44,203 nucleotides of DNA from an uncultured Bacteroidota bacterium (GTDB taxonomy: Bacteria > Bacteroidota > Bacteroidia > 2-12-FULL-35-15): NCBI GenBank assembly GCA_903911435.1, contig CAIWDF010000024.1:1-44203 (forward strand), written 5' to 3'. Shown here in pieces: positions 1 to 36,153 of this stretch. The position numbers were made by a program, and so were the translations under genes. Positions within the stretch are counted from its first letter, which is position 1; every line of letters starts with the position of its first letter. A model generated the notes under the pieces. It was not told the origin of the DNA, made no database searches, and saw only the letters and a program-made list of their open reading frames with translations.

Positions 1-268
1 CTAAAAAACAAATAGTAACCCTAAACAGAGTAATAGTAACTCATAACAAACAAATAGTAACCCTAAACAGAGTAATAGTAACTCATAACAAACAAATAGT
101 AACCCTAAACAGAGTAATAGTAACTCAAAACAGAGTAGGAGTAACTCAAAACAGACCAATAGTAACCCTAAACAGAGTAATAGTAACTCAAAACAGACCC
201 ATAGTAACTCAAAACACTCAAAAAGTAAAATTTCAAGGCAAAAAAGTAACATTAAAGAACAAAACTGT
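1..268 (-). repeat. 21-bp tandem array with conserved leader (copy 1, truncated by window edge)
   Basis: Read on the minus strand, a 54-base leader (268-215) runs into ten 21-bp units (214-5) and the first four bases of an eleventh, so the element continues beyond base 1. The unit core is GTTACTATTGGTCTGT, with a few positions changing between units. Two identical neighbouring pairs create a local 42-bp period in 5-110. The leader plus first unit matches the copy at 22830-22904 at 73 of 75 positions. The leader is itself in 21-bp phase, with TTACTTTTT starting every 21 bases. Because 21 is a multiple of three, several frames stay open by construction, and no gene is called here. Function unknown. 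Confidence 0.9.
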
Positions 269-436: not shown

Positions 437-2860
437 ATGTGGGCAGCCATAGCAAGATTTATCTTACGTAACCGAATAGCCATCATTGTGGTGTTGACCG
501 TGATAACGGTTTTGTTTGGCTACTATGCCCGAATAGCGGAAATAAGTTACGAATCGCCAAAACTATTGCCCGACCACGATACCACTGCCATAGAGTACAA
601 AGCTTTTAAGAAACGTTTTGGGCAAGATGGAAGTGTGATGGTGCTGGGCATAAACGAGGATGGTTTGTACAAATTGGAACGATTTAACCAATGGTACGAC
701 CTAGGTGTGAGGCTGAAAGATGTGGTAGGTGTGAAAGCTGTGGTTTCCGTAGCTCGCTTGCGCACGGTGATAAAGAATGATAGTTTAGGGATATTTGAAG
801 ACAAGCCAATAGTAAGTCAACGGCCGAAAACGCAAGCGGAAGTGGATAGCTTGAAAACGGTGATTGCCAATTTGCCTTTTTACAAAGACATCATTTATAA
901 CGACTCGGCACATGCCACACTGATGGCCATTACCTTCGACAATAAAAAGCTGAATACCAAAAACCGATTGGACATAGTGGATGCCATAAAACTGGAGGTG
1001 GATAAGTTTGTGGGAGATTCGCATGTGGAGGTGCATTATTCGGGTATGCCTTATATACGCACTGCGGTAGCTAGGAAGATAAAGGACGAGATGTCGCTAT
1101 TTATGATCCTTGCCATTATTGTTACGGGTATTATTCTGTTTGTGTTTTTCCGTTCGATATTGCCCGTGGTGTTTTCGTTGGCAGTGGTGTTTGTGGGTGT
1201 TATTTGGTCGGTAGGGTTTTTGGTTTTATTTGGGTATCAGATTTCTGTTCTCACGGGCTTGATTCCTCCTTTGCTCATTGTTATTGGTGTGCCCAATTGC
1301 ATCATGTTGCTGAACAAGTATCATCAGGAATACAAGATACATGGCAACCAAATAAAATCGTTGGCACGCGCTATCGAGAAAGTGGGGGTATCACTGTTTT
1401 TGGCCAATGTAACTACCTCCATAGGGTTTGCAGTGTTTTGTTCAACGGATAGTACGTTGCTTTTCGAATTTGGTTTAATTTCGTCTATCAGTGTGATGTT
1501 TACTTACGTTATATCGATGATGTTGATACCTATCGTGTTTAGCTTTTTACCTCCGCCATCGGTGAAACATGTGAAACACTTACAATCGAAACTGATTACC
1601 AAACTGCTCGAAAAGATAAACTACATTGTGCATCATCATCGCCCTCGCATCTATGTGATAGTGGTTTGTATTCTTCTCGTGTCGGTGTTCGGTGTAACCA
1701 AAATATTGCCTTTGGGATATGTGGTAGACGATTTGCCAAAGAAAGACCCCGTGTTGCTGGACTTGAAATATTTCGAGAAAGATTATCACGGAGTGTTGCC
1801 TTTTGAAATAAGCATCGATTCGAAAAAGCCCAATGGTATATTTGCTGATGGAGGCCGAACGCTGTATAAAATAAATAAACTTCAAAAGCTGTTCTTACAA
1901 TATCCCGAATTTTCGAGAGCGGTGTCGGTGGTAGAGGGAATTAAGTTTTTCAATCAAGCCTATAACGATGGTAAGGTGAAAGCCTACCGATTGCCAGGCG
2001 CGATGGAATTACAGAAGCTTTCGGACTTTGCAGGAGCCAACATGAAAGGAAAAGGTAGTCAGTTTGTGGCATTTATAGACAGCACCAAACAGTATACCCG
2101 CATCAGCATACAGATGAAAGACATTGGTTCGATACGAATGACTAGCCTGATAGACACCTTGAAACCTCGAATAGACAGTGTTTTTAATTTTGATTATGAA
2201 ACCAACACGTGGGCAACAGCTGATAAAAACTACAAGGTGGTGGTTACAGGTAATAGCTTAATGTTTTTGAAAGGAAACGCCTTTTTGGTTGAAAACCTTT
2301 TAGAATCGGTATTGCTAGCTATTATCCTTATTGCTATTGTAATGTTCACCCTGTTCATGTCGCCTCGAATGGTGTTGATTTCGGTAATACCTAGTCTTGT
2401 TCCACTCATCATCACAGCAGGATTAATGGGCTTTTTCGATATTCATTTAAAACCTTCTACCATTTTAATCTTTAGTATTGCCTTCGGTATTTCGTCAGAT
2501 GGAACCATGTATTTCCTTACCAAATACCGACAAGAAATGAAAAACCACAACAGCAATATTTCGAAAACAGTGTCGTTAGCCATCCGCGAAACGGGAGTAA
2601 GCATGATTTATACGGCCATCATCCTTTTCTGTGGATTCGGCATATTCACTGCATCGAGCTTTGGTGGCACCGCAGCACTTGGAATTTTGATTTCGGTAAC
2701 GCTTCTGTTGGCCTATTGCTCCAATCTTGTATTGTTGCCTTGCTTTTTATTGACATTGGAAAAACGATTAACAACCAAAGCATTTTTAGCAGAACCATTA
2801 ATCCAAGTGTTCGATGAGGAAGAGGATATCGATTTGGATGAATTAGAAATAAAAGAATAA
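437..2860 (+). CDS. RND/MMPL-family membrane exporter
   Basis: This 807-residue integral membrane protein is built as two homologous halves, as in the RND superfamily. TM1 lies near residues 10-28, followed by a large extracytoplasmic domain and a five-helix block near 218-385. TM7 near 401-423 begins the second half, followed by another large domain and a block near 615-780. The second block contains the family-like stretch [18 protein letters not shown]. The C-terminus is strongly acidic. MMPL and patched-like RND proteins move lipids or other hydrophobic molecules across the inner membrane using ion gradients. The substrate cannot be read here, though the downstream lipid and glycan genes make an envelope component plausible. 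The ATG at 437 directly precedes TM1. rfbA follows 22 bp later, suggesting co-transcription. Confidence 0.85.
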
Positions 2861-20236: not shown

Positions 20237-20264
20237 CCTTATTTATTAAACCGAAGAAAGATTG

Positions 20265-22742
20265 ATGAAAAATAGTTTCGTAATACTTTATATTATAGTA
20301 TGCACTTTATGTGCAAGTAGTGGCTGGAGTATGCCAGCAGGAAAAACCACCTTAACAGGCAAGGTGACCGACAAAGCCAGTGGCGAGGCCCTACCAGGAG
20401 TTACCCTATATGTTCCCGACTTAAAAACTGGTGCTGTTACCAATTTGGATGGTGTATATAAAATAGAAAATTTGCCCAATTCGAAAATCTTAATTCAAAT
20501 TAGTTTTTTGGGTTATACGCCAATTTTAGAAACGGTAGACCTTGCCACCATCACGAACAAAGACTTTGCTTTGGAAGCCTCTGTAAAAGAGATGAGCGAA
20601 GTGGTGGTGACGGGAACTTCGAAAGCTACTGAGATAAAACGAAATCCGGTGCCTATGATGTCGGTGAACAAAGAGTTTCTTACACAAAATGCTTCCACCA
20701 ACATCATTGAAACATTGAATAAAGTTCCAGGAGTAAGCAGCCTTTCGACTGGCCCTAATGTATCGAAACCTTATATACGTGGGCTTGGCAGCAACCGTGT
20801 ACTTACTATGTATGATGGAGTGAGGCAAGAAGGCCAACAATGGGGCGAGGAGCATGGAGTGGAGATGGACCAGTTTTTAATCGACCATATTGAGGTGCTG
20901 AAAGGCCCTGCTAGCCTTATGTATGGCTCTGATGCATTGGCGGGTGTGGTGAACCTATTGCCTGCAAACCCAGTGCCCGAGGGCACCATCAAGGGAAATG
21001 TGCTTAGCAATTATCAGACGAACAACAAACAAATAGCTGGTTCGATAGCTTTGGATGGTAATAACAAAGGGTTTATTTGGGGATTTAGAGCATCGCGCAA
21101 GCAAGCGAGCAATTACCAAAACAAAGTGGATGGACCTGTGTACGGAACTAAATATCAAGAGAACGATTTGAATGCCTACATTGGCTTGCAACGTTCGTGG
21201 GGTTATACTCACCTCAACTTTAGTGTATACGACAACTTACAGGAAATACCAGATGGTAGTCGCGATTCGCTGACGCGAAAGTTTACGCAACAAATCAGTG
21301 AGCTGGATACCGTTCGGCCTATTGTTTCCAATCAACAACTTACCTCCTATTCTATTGCTGTGCTGCATCAGCATGTGCAACATTATCGTTTGTATTCGGC
21401 TAGCAATTTTATTTTCGGCAGAAGCAAACTCAACATGAACCTTGGGGTGCAGCAAAGTGTGCGCAGAGAATACAGTCACCCTACTGCTCCCGATTTGGCT
21501 GGTTTATCGCTTTTGCTCAATGTATATTCTTACGATTTCAAATTGCATTTGCCCGATGTGAATGGTCTCGAATCGACCATTGGAGTGAATGGAATGCTGC
21601 AACATAATGATGCTAGCAAGGGCAGCGAATTTGTGGTGCCCAACTATCGTTCGTTCGACCTAGGACCTTTTATTCATTTCAAAAAAACATTTGGCAAATT
21701 GGATGTGGCGGCTGGTATACGCTATGATGTAAGATGGTTTCAGAACGATTCGATGTATACTCATATCAACCCTTCTACCGGTTTCGAAGCTACCACCGCG
21801 TATACTGGCGACAGCACCTCCACCAAACAGTTTTCGTACTATAAACATATTTTTGCTGGACTAAGCGGCAGCATAGGTGCTACGTATAACTTGAACGATA
21901 AGTTGAGCATAAAGGCCAATGTGGCTCGTGGTTATCGTGCTCCTAATGTGTTCGAAATAGCTGCCAAAGGAGTGCACCCGGGCACTGGCATTCAACAGTT
22001 GGGTGACGACAATTTCAAGCCCGAATTCAGTTTGCAAGAAGACATCGGCCTTTTTCTCGAAAGCAAACATATTTCGGCAAGCATAGAAGTGTTCGAAAAC
22101 CATATCAGCAATTATATATACAACGAAAAACTACAAACTTCGCAAGGCAGCGATTCGCTTTTCCATCAAGCCGGAAACACATATCCGGTGTTCAAGTTTC
22201 GCCAAACAAGTGCTGCTTTGGTAGGTGGGGAATTGAGTTTCGAGATACATCCTCACCCACTCGATTGGTTGCATTTCGAAAACTCCATCTCCATTATATA
22301 TGCTACCAACCGAGGTGGCAATGGTGCACACATAACCGATAGTACCAAGTACCTGCCGTTTATTCCACCGCTGCATACCAATTCGGAACTACGAGCCAAC
22401 TTGAAAACCAAATTCGCACGCGTTGCCAACGCTTACCTCAAAATAGGGGTACAATATTATGCTGCGCAAAACAGGGCTTATCTTGCCTCGGGCACCGAAA
22501 CCAAAACCCCTGCTTACACCCTCGTGGAAGCAGGTATGGGCACCGATGTGCTCAACAAAAAAGGCAAAACGCTTATCAATGTGAGCATACTGGGCACCAA
22601 CCTGGCCGATGTGGCTTACCAATCGAACATGAGTAGGTTGAAGTATTTCGATAATTACCCCAACAATGGAAGTGGACGAAGTGGCATCTATAATATAGGT
22701 AGAAACATTAGTTTCAAGTTGGTGATTCCGGTGGGGTTTTAG
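20265..22742 (+). CDS. TonB-dependent outer-membrane receptor, probably metal uptake
   Basis: An 825-residue receptor. After a signal peptide (about 1-24) comes a carboxypeptidase-regulatory-like domain (TLTGKVTDKASGEALPGVTL ... VDL, about 27-105), then the plug domain with VPGVSSLSTGPNVSKPYIRGLGSNRV and IDHIEVLKGPASLMYGSDALAGVVNL, then a beta-barrel ending in the aromatic C-terminus VIPVGF. The plug segment DGVRQEGQQWGEEHGVE resembles zinc/copper-type receptors, from memory of the family. The neighbouring His/Cys-rich protein supports metal uptake. The true start is ATG 20265, just after an in-frame TTG. The gene ends directly in the 15-bp repeat block. Confidence 0.9.
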   Translation: MKNSFVILYIIVCTLCASSGWSMPAGKTTLTGKVTDKASGEALPGVTLYVPDLKTGAVTNLDGVYKIENLPNSKILIQISFLGYTPILETVDLATITNKDFALEASVKEMSEVVVTGTSKATEIKRNPVPMMSVNKEFLTQNASTNIIETLNKVPGVSSLSTGPNVSKPYIRGLGSNRVLTMYDGVRQEGQQWGEEHGVEMDQFLIDHIEVLKGPASLMYGSDALAGVVNLLPANPVPEGTIKGNVLSNYQTNNKQIAGSIALDGNNKGFIWGFRASRKQASNYQNKVDGPVYGTKYQENDLNAYIGLQRSWGYTHLNFSVYDNLQEIPDGSRDSLTRKFTQQISELDTVRPIVSNQQLTSYSIAVLHQHVQHYRLYSASNFIFGRSKLNMNLGVQQSVRREYSHPTAPDLAGLSLLLNVYSYDFKLHLPDVNGLESTIGVNGMLQHNDASKGSEFVVPNYRSFDLGPFIHFKKTFGKLDVAAGIRYDVRWFQNDSMYTHINPSTGFEATTAYTGDSTSTKQFSYYKHIFAGLSGSIGATYNLNDKLSIKANVARGYRAPNVFEIAAKGVHPGTGIQQLGDDNFKPEFSLQEDIGLFLESKHISASIEVFENHISNYIYNEKLQTSQGSDSLFHQAGNTYPVFKFRQTSAALVGGELSFEIHPHPLDWLHFENSISIIYATNRGGNGAHITDSTKYLPFIPPLHTNSELRANLKTKFARVANAYLKIGVQYYAAQNRAYLASGTETKTPAYTLVEAGMGTDVLNKKGKTLINVSILGTNLADVAYQSNMSRLKYFDNYPNNGSGRSGIYNIGRNISFKLVIPVGF

Positions 22743-22800
22743 TTTAAAGTTAGAAAGTTTAAAGTTGGAAAGTTTAAAGTTAGAAAGTTTAAAGTTGGAG
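22741..22800 (+). repeat. 15-bp tandem repeat (AGTTTAAAGTTAGAA), four copies
   Basis: Four adjacent 15-bp units alternate between AGTTTAAAGTTAGAA and AGTTTAAAGTTGGAA/GAG. They begin at the last base of the receptor stop codon. The final unit, AGTTTAAAGTTGGAGGG, is nearly the same as the module at 336-353, so it forms the outer edge of the repeat element. Confidence 0.9.
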
Positions 22801-22829: not shown

Positions 22830-23135
22830 ACAGTTTGGTTCTTTAATATTACTTTTTTGCCTTGAAATTTTACTTTTTGAGTGTTTTGAGTTACTATGGG
22901 TCTGTTATGCGTTACTCTAGCTCTGTTTAGGGTTACTATTGGTCTGTTTTGGGTTACTATTGGTCTGTTATGAGTTACTCTTACTCTGTTTTGAGTTACT
23001 CTTACTCTGTTATGGGTTACTATGGGTCTGTTATGAGTTACTCTTGCTCTGTTTAGGGTTACTATTGGTCTGTTTTGAGTTACTATTACTCTGTTTAGGG
23101 TTACTATTTGTTTTTTAGGGTTACTATTTTGATAA
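22830..23135 (+). repeat. 21-bp tandem array with conserved leader (copy 2, complete)
   Basis: A 54-base leader (22830-22883) is followed by eleven 21-bp units (22884-23114) and a twelfth degenerate unit to 23135. The leader plus first unit agrees with copy 1 at 73 of 75 positions. The last units, containing TTTAGGGTTACTATTTGTTT, also match copy 1. The interior units differ in order and kind: variable positions are the two bases after the second T of GTT, the base after TTG or TAG, A or C after TTACT, and the two or three bases before TCTG. Between the leader and the 15-bp block lie 29 unremarkable bases. Confidence 0.92.
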
Positions 23136-23140
23136 AAAAA

Positions 23141-23290
23141 GTAAAAAAGGGGTTTTTGAAAAGTAAAATGGGTGACAAAAAAAGTAAAAGTGAGTTTTGA
23201 AAAAGTAAAAAAGGGGTTTTTGAAAAGTAAAATGGGTGACAAAAAAAGTAAAAGTGAGTTTTGAAAAGGTAAAAATGGTTTTTTAGGATT
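23141..23290 (+). repeat. 64-bp tandem repeat made of three ~21-bp subunits
   Basis: Two nearly identical 64-bp copies start at 23141 and 23205, with a third partial copy from 23269. Inside each copy GTAAAA recurs at spacings of 22, 21 and 21 bp, so the 21-bp phase continues after the array. Reverse-complemented, the TTACTTTTT core matches the leader of the array. The rest of the gap to the peptidase start at 23452 holds A/T-rich sequence with a near-match promoter element TACCTTTA (23419-23426). Confidence 0.88.
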
Positions 23291-23451
23291 TAGGATTTGT
23301 GAGCCTCAACGATTTTTAAACTCTGGTTTCTTTGCGATAAATAAGAAATCTTAAATCAATTGTGAATCCTTCATCAATTAAACCCATTGAGATTTCGCTT
23401 CGTGTTAAAAATCTTATTACCTTTATTGTCTCAACAAATGGCATTGTATTT

Positions 23452-25881
23452 ATGAAATTCAAGATATTATTTCTCGCCTTGTGCATTTCGCTTGGCTTGC
23501 AAGCACAGCATCGACATCAAAAAACTAATTTACCTCATCCTAGTTTTCAAGCTTCTAACTTGCGCAGCGACACGGTGGATATCCTCAAGTATACCATCAA
23601 CCTCAACATCACTAGTTTTGTAGATAGCAGCATCAGCGGAAATACGGAAATAAAATTTACACCCAAGCTAAATGGAGTGAGCAGTGTTGCTTTAGATTTG
23701 TTGAAACTTACAGTAGATTCGGTGAAGTGGGCCACATCGAATTTGATGTATACCTATGACGACACTTTGTTGTTGGTAAGCCTTGCACAACCCATGAATA
23801 TAGGCGATACTAGTTCTATGGTGGTGTATTATCATGGTAAACCGCAAGGCGATGCATCGGGCTGGGGAGGTTTTTATTTTCAGAACGGATATGCTTATAA
23901 TTTAGGAGTCGGTTTTGCAGCACAGCCGCATTGTTATGGTAGAGTTTGGTTTCCGTGTTTCGACAATTTTGTGGAACGTTCGGTTTACGAATTCAACATC
24001 ACCACCAACAATGGCAAACTGGCGTATTGCAATGGTTATCTTGCCAACGACACGACCGACTTGAGCGGAAACCGAACTCGCAAATGGATTTTGGATAAAG
24101 AAATACCAACGTATTTGGCATCGGTGTCGGTGGCAGCTTATGCACAAATCAACCAAACCTTTAATAGCCTCACTGGACCAAAACCTATTGTAATAGCTGC
24201 ATTGGCCGGAGATACTACTAATGTAAAAAACTCATTCATTAACCTTCCGTCAGCTTTGTCGACTTACGAAAACCGCTTCGGGCCTTATCGTTGGAACAGA
24301 GTGGGCTATTGCATGGTGCCGTTTTCGTCAGGAGCTATGGAGCATGCTACTAATATCTCGTATCCGCAAGCAGCAGCCAACGGCTCGTTGCTCAATCAAA
24401 CGGTGATGGCACACGAGCTCTCGCATCATTGGTTTGGCGACTTGGTTACCTGCCGCACCCCGCAAGACATGTGGCTGAACGAAGGCTGGGCAAGGTATTG
24501 CGAGTTCATCTTCACCGAAGGACTGAGTGGATACACCAGTTATTTGAATGATGTAAGGCTGAATCACGAAAACTGTTTACAGTTTTTAGAACCCATTGAA
24601 GGCGGTTTTCAAACCCTATCGAACATGCCTCTGAGCATGACCTATGGAGTGATAGGTGCACCGGTAACTTCTACCTACGACCGTGGAGCCGACATTGCGC
24701 ACACTTTAAGAGGATACATGGGTGATAGTTTGTTTTTCTATTCGTTGAAAGATTATTTGGCACAACATCAATACCAAGATGTGTCGAGTGCTGATATGAG
24801 AGATGCACTCACCAATGCAAGTGGAATAAACCTTACCGATTTTTTCAACGATTGGGTATTCAATCCGGGATGGCCTCATTTCTCTATCGATTCGACACAT
24901 GCAGTAGCCAATGGAAGTAATTATTTGGTGACTGTTTATCTGAAACAAAAACTAACAGGAGCACCCAATTATTTCAATCAAGTGCCCTTGAACATTACCT
25001 TCAAAGCAGCTAACTGGGCCGAACAAATACGACAGGTATACATGTCGGGGCCTAATGCTTCGTTTCAGTTTACGTTGCCTTTCAACCCGGTGTTCACTGC
25101 TGTGAATATGGACGAAAAAATAAGTCATGCAGTGGCTCCTGCCTACCAAACCATAAAAACAACGGGAAGCAAAAGTTTTGCAAATGCAAAGATGACCATT
25201 GGTGTAACCAGTATTTCTGATTCGGCATTTGTGAGGGTAGAACATAATTTTGCTGCACCCGATGCGTTTCAACACTGCTGCATGCCTTACCGATTGTCGC
25301 CTAATCATTATTGGAAAGTGGATGGTATATTGCCCTCCAACTTTAAAGCCACCGCTACTATTTTTTACAATGGGCAAACTACTTCGTACAGTGGTTACAA
25401 TTGGCTCGACAATAATTTGATTACTACTTACGAGGATAGTTTGGTGCTGATGTACCGCAGAAATGCAGCTTCTGATTGGAGTATATATCCTTATTATCAC
25501 AAAAACATGCTTGGAAGCAATAATAATAAGTATGGCCAAATCATTATTGATACACTTCATTTGGGCGAATTTACTTTTGCCATGAAAGATTATTTATTGG
25601 GAGTACCTAACACGGATGCTTCGGCCAATGTGCAAGTGGTAAAACTATTTCCAAATCCAGCTAATGATTTGATAAGTGTTGAACTCTTGACCAAACCTAC
25701 CAATCCTTGCACTTTGATGGTGACCGATGTGGTTGGAAAACTGGTGTATCAAGAAACGATAACCAATTCGAAAAACACTACTACCATTAATACATCTGCT
25801 TTTAAGAACGGAATGTATTTCCTTACTTTAAAATCGACTGACCGAATAGTATCAAAAAATAAATTTATTGTTTCACATTAA
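23452..25881 (+). CDS. Secreted M1-family metallopeptidase with T9SS tail
   Basis: An aminopeptidase N-like zinc protease of 809 residues. The start is ATG 23452, giving the signal peptide MKFKILFLALCISLGLQAQ; the open frame to 23362 lacks a signal at its start. The zinc site HELSHHW is at 321-327 and the third ligand Glu344 lies in WLNEGW, a perfect HExxH-x18-E. The M1 exopeptidase motif appears as GAMEH. The C-terminal 75 residues (from VVKLFPNPANDLISVEL to NKFIVSH) are a type A T9SS sorting domain, so the protein is expected to be secreted or surface-attached. The next M1 gene begins 12 bp later. Confidence 0.93.
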   Translation: MKFKILFLALCISLGLQAQHRHQKTNLPHPSFQASNLRSDTVDILKYTINLNITSFVDSSISGNTEIKFTPKLNGVSSVALDLLKLTVDSVKWATSNLMYTYDDTLLLVSLAQPMNIGDTSSMVVYYHGKPQGDASGWGGFYFQNGYAYNLGVGFAAQPHCYGRVWFPCFDNFVERSVYEFNITTNNGKLAYCNGYLANDTTDLSGNRTRKWILDKEIPTYLASVSVAAYAQINQTFNSLTGPKPIVIAALAGDTTNVKNSFINLPSALSTYENRFGPYRWNRVGYCMVPFSSGAMEHATNISYPQAAANGSLLNQTVMAHELSHHWFGDLVTCRTPQDMWLNEGWARYCEFIFTEGLSGYTSYLNDVRLNHENCLQFLEPIEGGFQTLSNMPLSMTYGVIGAPVTSTYDRGADIAHTLRGYMGDSLFFYSLKDYLAQHQYQDVSSADMRDALTNASGINLTDFFNDWVFNPGWPHFSIDSTHAVANGSNYLVTVYLKQKLTGAPNYFNQVPLNITFKAANWAEQIRQVYMSGPNASFQFTLPFNPVFTAVNMDEKISHAVAPAYQTIKTTGSKSFANAKMTIGVTSISDSAFVRVEHNFAAPDAFQHCCMPYRLSPNHYWKVDGILPSNFKATATIFYNGQTTSYSGYNWLDNNLITTYEDSLVLMYRRNAASDWSIYPYYHKNMLGSNNNKYGQIIIDTLHLGEFTFAMKDYLLGVPNTDASANVQVVKLFPNPANDLISVELLTKPTNPCTLMVTDVVGKLVYQETITNSKNTTTINTSAFKNGMYFLTLKSTDRIVSKNKFIVSH

Positions 25882-35272: not shown

Positions 35273-35818
35273 TTTGAATAACGAAAACTCTTTTCTGATA
35301 AAAGACGACTTCTATCTATTAATCGAATGGCTCTTTTGGATAAAAGATTAAACCTTCCTGACATTCGAAAATTATTTTCGACTAGTCGATAATTGCTTCC
35401 GAACATTCAAACAACGCATCCGAATAAACGGAAGACCCTCCCGAATACTCGAATGACTCTTCCTGATACTCGAAAAGTATTTTCGACTAGTCGATGACCT
35501 CTCCCGAATATTCGGACAACTCATCCGAATAAGCGAAAGACCCTTCGGAATACTCGGACAACTCTTCCCGATATTCGAAAAATATTTTCGAATAGTCGAT
35601 GACACCTTCCGAACATTCGGACAACTCATCCGAATAAGCGAAAGACCCTTCGGAATACTCGAACGACTCTTCCTGATATTCGAAAAATATTTTCGAATAG
35701 TCGATGACCTCTTCCGAACATTCGGACGACTTATCCGAATAAGCGAAAGACCTTTCCGAATAGTCGAAAATATTTTTCGACTATTCGGATGATGTTTTCT
35801 GATAAGCGAAAGGATTTT
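35273..35818. repeat. 21-bp tandem array with 105-bp higher-order period (26 units)
   Basis: From 35273 to 35818 the sequence divides into 26 units of exactly 21 bp with no register break. Five unit types repeat in order, giving a 105-bp higher-order repeat: type 1 CCGAACATTCGG.., type 2 CCGAATAAGCGAAAGA.., type 3 CGGAATACTCGA.., type 4 CCTGATATTCGAAAAA.., type 5 TCGAATAGTCGATGA... Three complete five-unit copies begin at 35399, 35504 and 35609, with partial copies on both sides and more degenerate units at the left end (35273-35356). Many units hold 12-bp dyads such as CCGAATATTCGG (35504) and TCGACTAGTCGA (35378 and 35483). DNA between the mscS stop and 35273 is not clearly repetitive. Confidence 0.93.
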
Positions 35819-36153
35819 TATGCAGCGGTATGGGTTTAATATCGAAATTGAGAATTATTGGAATCCATTCCTTGGAATGCAAGTGTAAACTAATGATGAA
35901 AAACGAGTTTCTAAAAAATATTTTTTCAATATTTCACAATATTTTATCACTTCTTACGTATAAGAGGGTAATAAAGACAACATCCCCATGTTTTAGTTTT
36001 TGTTACAAATGGTTTTAGGTGAAGAAGCATACTGCTTATTATTTCTCTGCTTGACACTGTAGTTGCAAGGCCTCCAAAAAGATTTTTATGGAAAATTCGA
36101 AGTAGGTGCATCTAATAGTTAACAAGAGTAATTAATTCTAAAATTTAAAAGTC
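35819..36153. other. Intergenic DNA with no supported gene
   Basis: Between the array and the second TonB locus no convincing gene is seen. A 62-codon plus-strand frame (35830-36018) has no recognisable features. The last 40 bases are A/T-rich and probably hold the tonB leader, but no exact TAnnTTTG element was found. Confidence 0.6.

What the first reader, a model, noticed from the sequence alone, without database searches (positions are those of the whole stretch)
22830..23135. Two array loci have the same leader and ends but a different internal order of units
Leader plus first unit agree at 73 of 75 positions between 22830-22904 and the minus strand at 268-194, and the distal units also match. 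The ten and eleven inner units are drawn from the same small set of variant bases but occur in different order. Conserved ends with a shuffled interior point to a defined element that is copied as a whole and then rearranged, and not to an accidental minisatellite.
Basis: seen in the sequence. Interest (0 to 1): 0.75.

Follow-up and report, generated by a model that had tools for sequence, protein, structure and literature searches.

The report
Genome-wide 21-base intergenic repeat arrays
The two repeat arrays are real copies of one element, and they belong to a large, apparently undescribed set of non-coding arrays whose unit is almost always exactly 21 bases (two turns of DNA) although its sequence differs from place to place, which suggests that the spacing rather than the sequence is what matters.

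Summary
Leader plus first unit agree at 73/75 positions, the distal ends match and the interiors differ. The genome has three leader copies and four array places. The "leader" is mostly decayed edge units in the same 21-bp register, and a second 21-bp array follows in inverted orientation. The interior is not freely shuffled: it has turned over by gain and loss of units and by homogenisation within each locus (C229 units carry TCTATT, other loci TCTGTT).

The larger finding lies outside the coordinates. In several species of this Bacteroidia genus, and in one genome of another family, many intergenic gaps hold arrays of unrelated sequence with the same period. In about 1.4 Mb sampled, 54 of 66 intergenic arrays have period 21, 42, 63, 84 or 105, and 6 more are close to that. 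A whole-genome probe gives 399 hits at 21-bp spacing and 1 at 22 bp. The arrays are not coding, not RNA-structured, not heptamer-based, and share no motif. Close relatives lack them. Closest known: BrickBuilt of Porphyromonas. Best reading: helically phased minisatellite arrays, some copied as blocks. The cause of the 21-bp rule is inferred, not shown.

The parts
22830..22848 (+). non-repeat start of the element (ACAGTTTGGTTCTTTAATA), shared with locus 2 and C229
22891..23100 (+). main array, ten 21-bp units with TTACT at the start of each
23101..23135 (+). terminal unit and junction (TTACTATTTGTTTTTTAGGGTTACTATTTTGATAAAA), conserved in locus 1, C229 and C32
23136..23284 (-). tail array: AGTAAAA units (reverse complement TTTTACT), about 21-22 bp each, 64-bp higher-order unit; C32 has a longer version
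1..268 (-). second copy: leader 268-250, edge units 249-208, main array 207-19, terminal unit cut by the contig end at base 1
35354..35820 (.). a third intergenic array of unrelated sequence in the same 21-bp register (105-bp = 5 x 21 higher-order unit), between a mechanosensitive channel gene and a TonB gene
20262..22742 (+). TonB-dependent receptor gene upstream of locus 1 (context only)
23362..25881 (+). M1 peptidase gene with type IX secretion tail, downstream of locus 1 (context only)
437..2860 (+). MMPL-family transporter gene next to locus 2 (context only)

Best explanation
The element is one member of a lineage-specific population of intergenic, non-coding minisatellite arrays whose unit is held at two turns of the double helix (21 bp, rarely 20 or 22). 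Shown: the arrays share the period but not the sequence, lie between genes of any kind and orientation, carry no protein or RNA signal, and keep their register with few indels despite many substitutions. Shown: some arrays exist as small families copied as a block (edge units, array, tail) to new places. Inferred: after copying, interior units turn over by slippage or unequal exchange in steps of 21 or 42 bp, which homogenises each locus and leaves the edges old. Inferred and least certain: the unit length is fixed because something, most likely a DNA-binding or coating protein, needs successive units on the same face of the helix, so spacing is selected and sequence drifts.
For: Lag spectrum of 55 arrays: identity 0.70 at 21, 0.81 at 42, 0.69 at 63, and 0.25-0.31 at every other lag up to 62. 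54 of 66 intergenic arrays have period 21k and 6 more are 20, 41, 60, 64 or 82, whereas arrays inside genes have mostly other periods (18, 27, 45, 72, 87, 96, 120). Whole genomes: TTACT triples at 21-bp spacing 79, 19, 65, 12, 3, 31, 25, 19 and 146 hits in nine genomes; at 22 bp, 1 hit in the same nine plus two controls. Unit similarity between loci is at the shuffled level except for small families. 48 of 55 arrays have 0% indels; about 22 indel against 1057 mismatch columns, while flanks of one copied pair show 10 gaps against 41 mismatches. Block copying. Homogenisation: C229 units. The few 20, 41 and 22-bp arrays fit a helical rule better than a codon rule.
Against: No binding protein was identified. 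No shared motif. No 10.5-bp phasing of AA/TT, flexible or GC steps. Identity half a unit apart is slightly below chance (lag 10, z -3.0), which a simple one-turn phasing model does not predict. Periods of one, three or five turns (10-11, 31-32, 52-53 bp) are absent, so a two-turn quantum needs its own reason. The indel comparison rests on one copied pair, and homogenisation alone might purge indels.
Confidence: 0.42

Rival explanations
1. The arrays are neutral. An enzyme of these lineages (a polymerase, recombinase or repair system) makes tandem duplications in steps of 21 bp from arbitrary local sequence, so the period records the machine and not a function.
For: Unit sequences are unrelated between loci; array-rich species are scattered, with relatives in the same clade lacking arrays; no shared motif; neighbouring genes are of any kind, e.g. 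TonB receptor, rpoN, dnaB, atpD.
Against: Old, strongly diverged units still keep exact register, and some arrays have 20- or 22-bp units, which a fixed-step machine would not make.
Confidence: 0.3
2. The element is a BrickBuilt-like MITE: a non-autonomous transposable element that has captured a minisatellite and is moved by a transposase acting on its ends.
For: Leader, array and tail recur together at unlinked intergenic places in G000, in G027 and in G012/G014, as reported for BrickBuilt in P. gingivalis (PMC4596501). Short inverted repeats TTTTACTTTTT / AAAAAGTAAAA lie in leader and tail.
Against: No terminal inverted repeat at the outer ends; the inverted 10-11-mers are internal and recur several times in the tail. 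No target duplication was seen. Most arrays are single-copy, and a MITE does not explain a common 21-bp period in unrelated units.
Confidence: 0.15
3. The arrays act as RNA, as repeated binding sites for a regulator or as structured leader or terminator RNA.
For: All lie between genes, often 100-300 bp from a start or stop codon. Heptamer arrays in Beggiatoaceae have been proposed as translational signals (PMC4679880).
Against: Orientation to genes is mixed (19 divergent, 25 co-directional, 6 convergent). Folding of locus 1 is no better than shuffles (z +1.55), and across 48 arrays the mean z is only -0.5 to -0.6.
Confidence: 0.06
4. The arrays are coding: 21 bp is seven codons of a heptapeptide repeat.
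For: 21 is a multiple of three, and ORFs of 103 and 167 aa run through the two TTACT arrays.
Against: Open frames occur in 40 of 48 arrays against 40.1 expected after column permutation, and variability has no codon-position pattern. The 20, 41 and 22-bp arrays break the frame. The ORFs at loci 1 and 2 lie on opposite strands relative to the unit.
Confidence: 0.02

Closest known systems
BrickBuilt minisatellite/MITE of Porphyromonas gingivalis (PMC4596501)
   Same: Bacteroidota; intergenic; imperfect tandem units without spacers; conserved leader and tail with variable interior; multiple dispersed copies
   Different: BrickBuilt is one 23-nt family with IS5-like terminal inverted repeats; here many unrelated families share a 21-bp period, no terminal inverted repeats were found, and leader and tail are themselves 21-bp units
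TAACTGA heptamer repeats of Beggiatoaceae, Cyanobacteria and some Bacteroidetes (PMC4679880)
   Same: abundant intergenic direct repeats in a bacterial genome; 21 = 3 x 7
   Different: one fixed heptamer; the 21-bp units here show no 7-bp sub-repeat (lag 7, z -0.38)
Intergenic tandem repeats of lake Planctomycetota (PMC9426551)
   Same: intergenic tandem repeats that vary in copy number in freshwater bacteria
   Different: different phylum; in the passages found no unit length or common period is given
Plasmid iterons (from general knowledge, not tested)
   Same: directly repeated sites of about 20 bp set on one face of the helix
   Different: iterons share one sequence recognised by a Rep protein and lie at an origin; these arrays are dispersed and unrelated in sequence

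Membership tests
BrickBuilt-type MITE | tandem minisatellite with conserved leader and tail, several dispersed intergenic copies | tested here: met
   three leaders and three tails in G000; further families
BrickBuilt-type MITE | terminal inverted repeats matching an IS element | tested here: not met
   only internal 10-11-bp inverted motifs, repeated within the tail; IS matching was not attempted for lack of ends
BrickBuilt-type MITE | target-site duplication or empty site | tested here: inconclusive
   gene order around the sites is not conserved between species, so no empty site could be compared
BrickBuilt-type MITE | 23-nt BrickBuilt unit | tested here: not met
   unit is 21 bp
Heptamer (TAACTGA-type) arrays | 7-bp repeat unit | tested here: not met
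   no excess identity at lag 7 or 14
CRISPR array | repeats separated by unique spacers | tested here: not met
   head-to-tail units without spacers
Protein-coding repeat | one open frame kept beyond chance, codon-position bias | tested here: not met
Known RNA family | match to an Rfam model | tested here: not met
   no match in the window at gathering threshold
Helically phased protein-binding array | a protein that binds the units | not testable with these tools
   needs binding experiments; no shared motif found

The most novel reading that the evidence does not exclude
A bacterial lineage has filled many of its intergenic gaps with arrays in which only the spacing (two helical turns) is conserved and the sequence is free. 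This would be a spacing-coded chromosomal scaffold, comparable in kind to satellite DNA, read by an unknown protein.
Probability: 0.3. Interest if true: 0.88.

Novelty: new variant of a known kind. Interest (0 to 1): 0.7.

Why it matters
Bacterial minisatellites usually have assorted unit lengths. A genome in which unrelated arrays obey one length rule implies either a selected spacing or a copying machine with a fixed step, and neither has been described in the papers searched. It gives a direct comparative test, because close species with and without arrays are available. It also points to a practical problem: contigs of this genome often end inside such arrays, which short reads cannot cross.

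Tried and rejected
Coding origin: open frames and codon-position variability at chance. Heptamer origin: an AA/TT/AT signal at 7 bp looked promising, but direct lag-7 identity is at chance. Curved DNA by phased A-tracts: no 10.5-bp signal. Palindromic or operator-like units: only slightly above shuffles. Shared core motif or shared TTTTGAT junction: no shared motif beyond chance, and the junction word only slightly more frequent than in control gaps (14 against 8.9). RNA structure: locus 1 z +1.55. Phage or plasmid origin: no plasmid match, no viral contig match. Conserved position of arrays: upstream of atpD, G012, G014 and G004 have arrays of unrelated units while G000, G027 and G015 have none, and neighbouring genes differ, so the test is inconclusive. 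The TonB-receptor neighbourhood of locus 1 is not conserved in relatives.

Full report
WHAT WAS CHECKED. The window is a complete contig (C24) of a 4.19-Mb, 312-contig assembly. Written in 21-base lines, every unit begins TTACT, and so do the last two lines of the leader (TTACTTTTTTGCCTTGAAATT, TTACTTTTTGAGTGTTTTGAG), so most of the leader is decayed array edge. After the main array comes a conserved junction and a second array with the inverted motif AGTAAAA (23136-23284), longer in the C32 copy, where it too runs in 21-base units.

HOW MANY COPIES. The genome has leaders at three places (C24 twice, C229) and tails at three (C24, C229, C32). C229 and C32 copies lie at contig ends, as locus 2 does. 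C32 may be a fourth element or a misassembled relative of locus 2. Interior units differ, but not at random: loci 1 and 2 keep some collinearity (1.2% of shuffles reach the observed cost), and locus 2 and C32 share a run of units with one dimer more or less. The regular interior units at C229 carry TCTATT where the other copies have TCTGTT, the mark of homogenisation within a locus after copying.

THE LARGER PATTERN. A search for TTACT at 21-bp spacing in the genus found not just this unit but many different ones, and the reversed control pattern hit just as often in the same genomes. Sampling about 1.4 Mb of five array-rich genomes gave 66 intergenic arrays: 54 with period 21, 42, 63, 84 or 105; six with 20, 41, 60, 64 or 82; six others. 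Arrays inside genes had mostly other periods. Part of the G012 sample was chosen because its contigs carried TTACT hits, so densities are rough and that genome is enriched by design; G027, G028 and G015 were not sampled in that way (one G028 contig was picked because it held a hit) and show the same rule. Two array-poor relatives, G010 (218 kb) and G002 (108 kb), showed no repeated intergenic period at the same threshold. The averaged lag spectrum is flat at 0.25-0.31 except for 0.70 at 21, 0.81 at 42 and 0.69 at 63. Over whole genomes, the TTACT probe gives 399 hits at 21 bp in eleven genomes and one at 22 bp in the same eleven. G005 does hold a pair of 22-bp arrays and G028 a pair of 20- and 41-bp arrays, so the rule is about two turns rather than exactly 21.

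WHAT THE ARRAYS SHARE. Sequence: nothing beyond small families. Place: between genes, in gaps of all orientations, commonly 100-300 bp from the nearest gene, median length 232 bp. Neighbours include a TonB receptor, an M1 peptidase, rpoN, dnaB and atpD. Register: adjacent units differ at 24% of sites, yet 48 of 55 arrays have no indels. In the flanks of one copied pair there are 10 gaps for 41 mismatches.

OTHER COPIED FAMILIES. In G027 two arrays of the unit TAAATCCTCAGGTTTACGTAT lie in opposite orientation with about 200 bp of homologous flank and differ in unit number. In the sister species G012 and G014, three arrays at unrelated places share a leader of AAAAGAAGAATT units, present about two to eight times, before a main array of related 21-bp units. 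The TTACT unit itself recurs in G012 at 17-18 of 21 positions, upstream of dnaB and atpD among other places.

DISTRIBUTION. On a TonB-receptor tree the array-rich species fall in one half of the genus, but G008, G002 and G018 in that half have none or few by the probe (G008 and G018 are incomplete genomes). Among 396 class members only this genus and G266, of another family, stand out with many different arrays; a handful of others have one or a few. The only named record matching the unit that shows an array of this kind is an uncultured Bacteroidetes metagenome bin, MJ-time_bin-7887 (L083); its contig number and length match G012's C363.

MECHANISM. Shown: block copying, homogenisation within loci, a common period without common sequence, absence of coding and RNA signals. 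Inferred: turnover by slippage or unequal exchange. Open: why 21. Selection for helical phase explains the exact register, the 20-22 tolerance and the free sequence, but predicts a binding protein that was not found and does not explain why one- and three-turn units are missing. A copying machine with a 21-bp step explains the quantum but not the 20- and 22-bp arrays nor the scarcity of indels in diverged arrays.

RELATION TO KNOWN THINGS. BrickBuilt in P. gingivalis is the nearest in form (PMC4596501), but it is a single 23-nt family with IS-like terminal repeats. The literature searches on tandem repeats and periods gave no description of a genome-wide 21-bp rule; only open-licence papers could be searched.

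LIMITS. Most genomes here are draft or metagenome assemblies, arrays sit at many contig ends, and copy numbers inside arrays may be wrong. Gene calls were made with a simple codon model. The indel comparison uses one pair.

Noticed in passing
window 35354-35820: Third array in the window with unrelated TTCGAA-rich units in 21-bp register and a 105-bp higher-order unit.
   Followed up: partly
window 22741-22799: Short 15/30-bp array (AGTTTAAAGTTAGAA) directly after the TonB receptor stop codon; similar AGTTTAAAGTT fragments lie before the leader at locus 2 and C229.
   Followed up: no
L095:1-306, L096:3903-4184, L098:3770-3897, L105:1-197, C24, C32 and C229 ends: Many contigs of this genome end inside or next to 21-bp arrays, so the arrays probably cause much of the assembly's fragmentation.
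   Followed up: partly
G266 (another family, f70): 146 TTACT-21 hits and as many reversed-control hits, with several unit families repeated at different contigs: an apparently independent array-rich lineage.
   Followed up: partly
L050:1501-1531 (G049, another family): A single 31-base, 90% match to the array/tail junction (TTTGTTTTTTAGGGTTACTATTTTGAT) without any array.
   Followed up: no
unit consensus of 41 arrays: Identity half a unit apart (lag 10) is lower than in shuffled units (z -3.0); unexplained.
   Followed up: no
L235 and L233 upstream of atpD: G004 and G014 carry unrelated 42-bp arrays in the same gap upstream of atpD where G012 has a TTACT array.
   Followed up: partly
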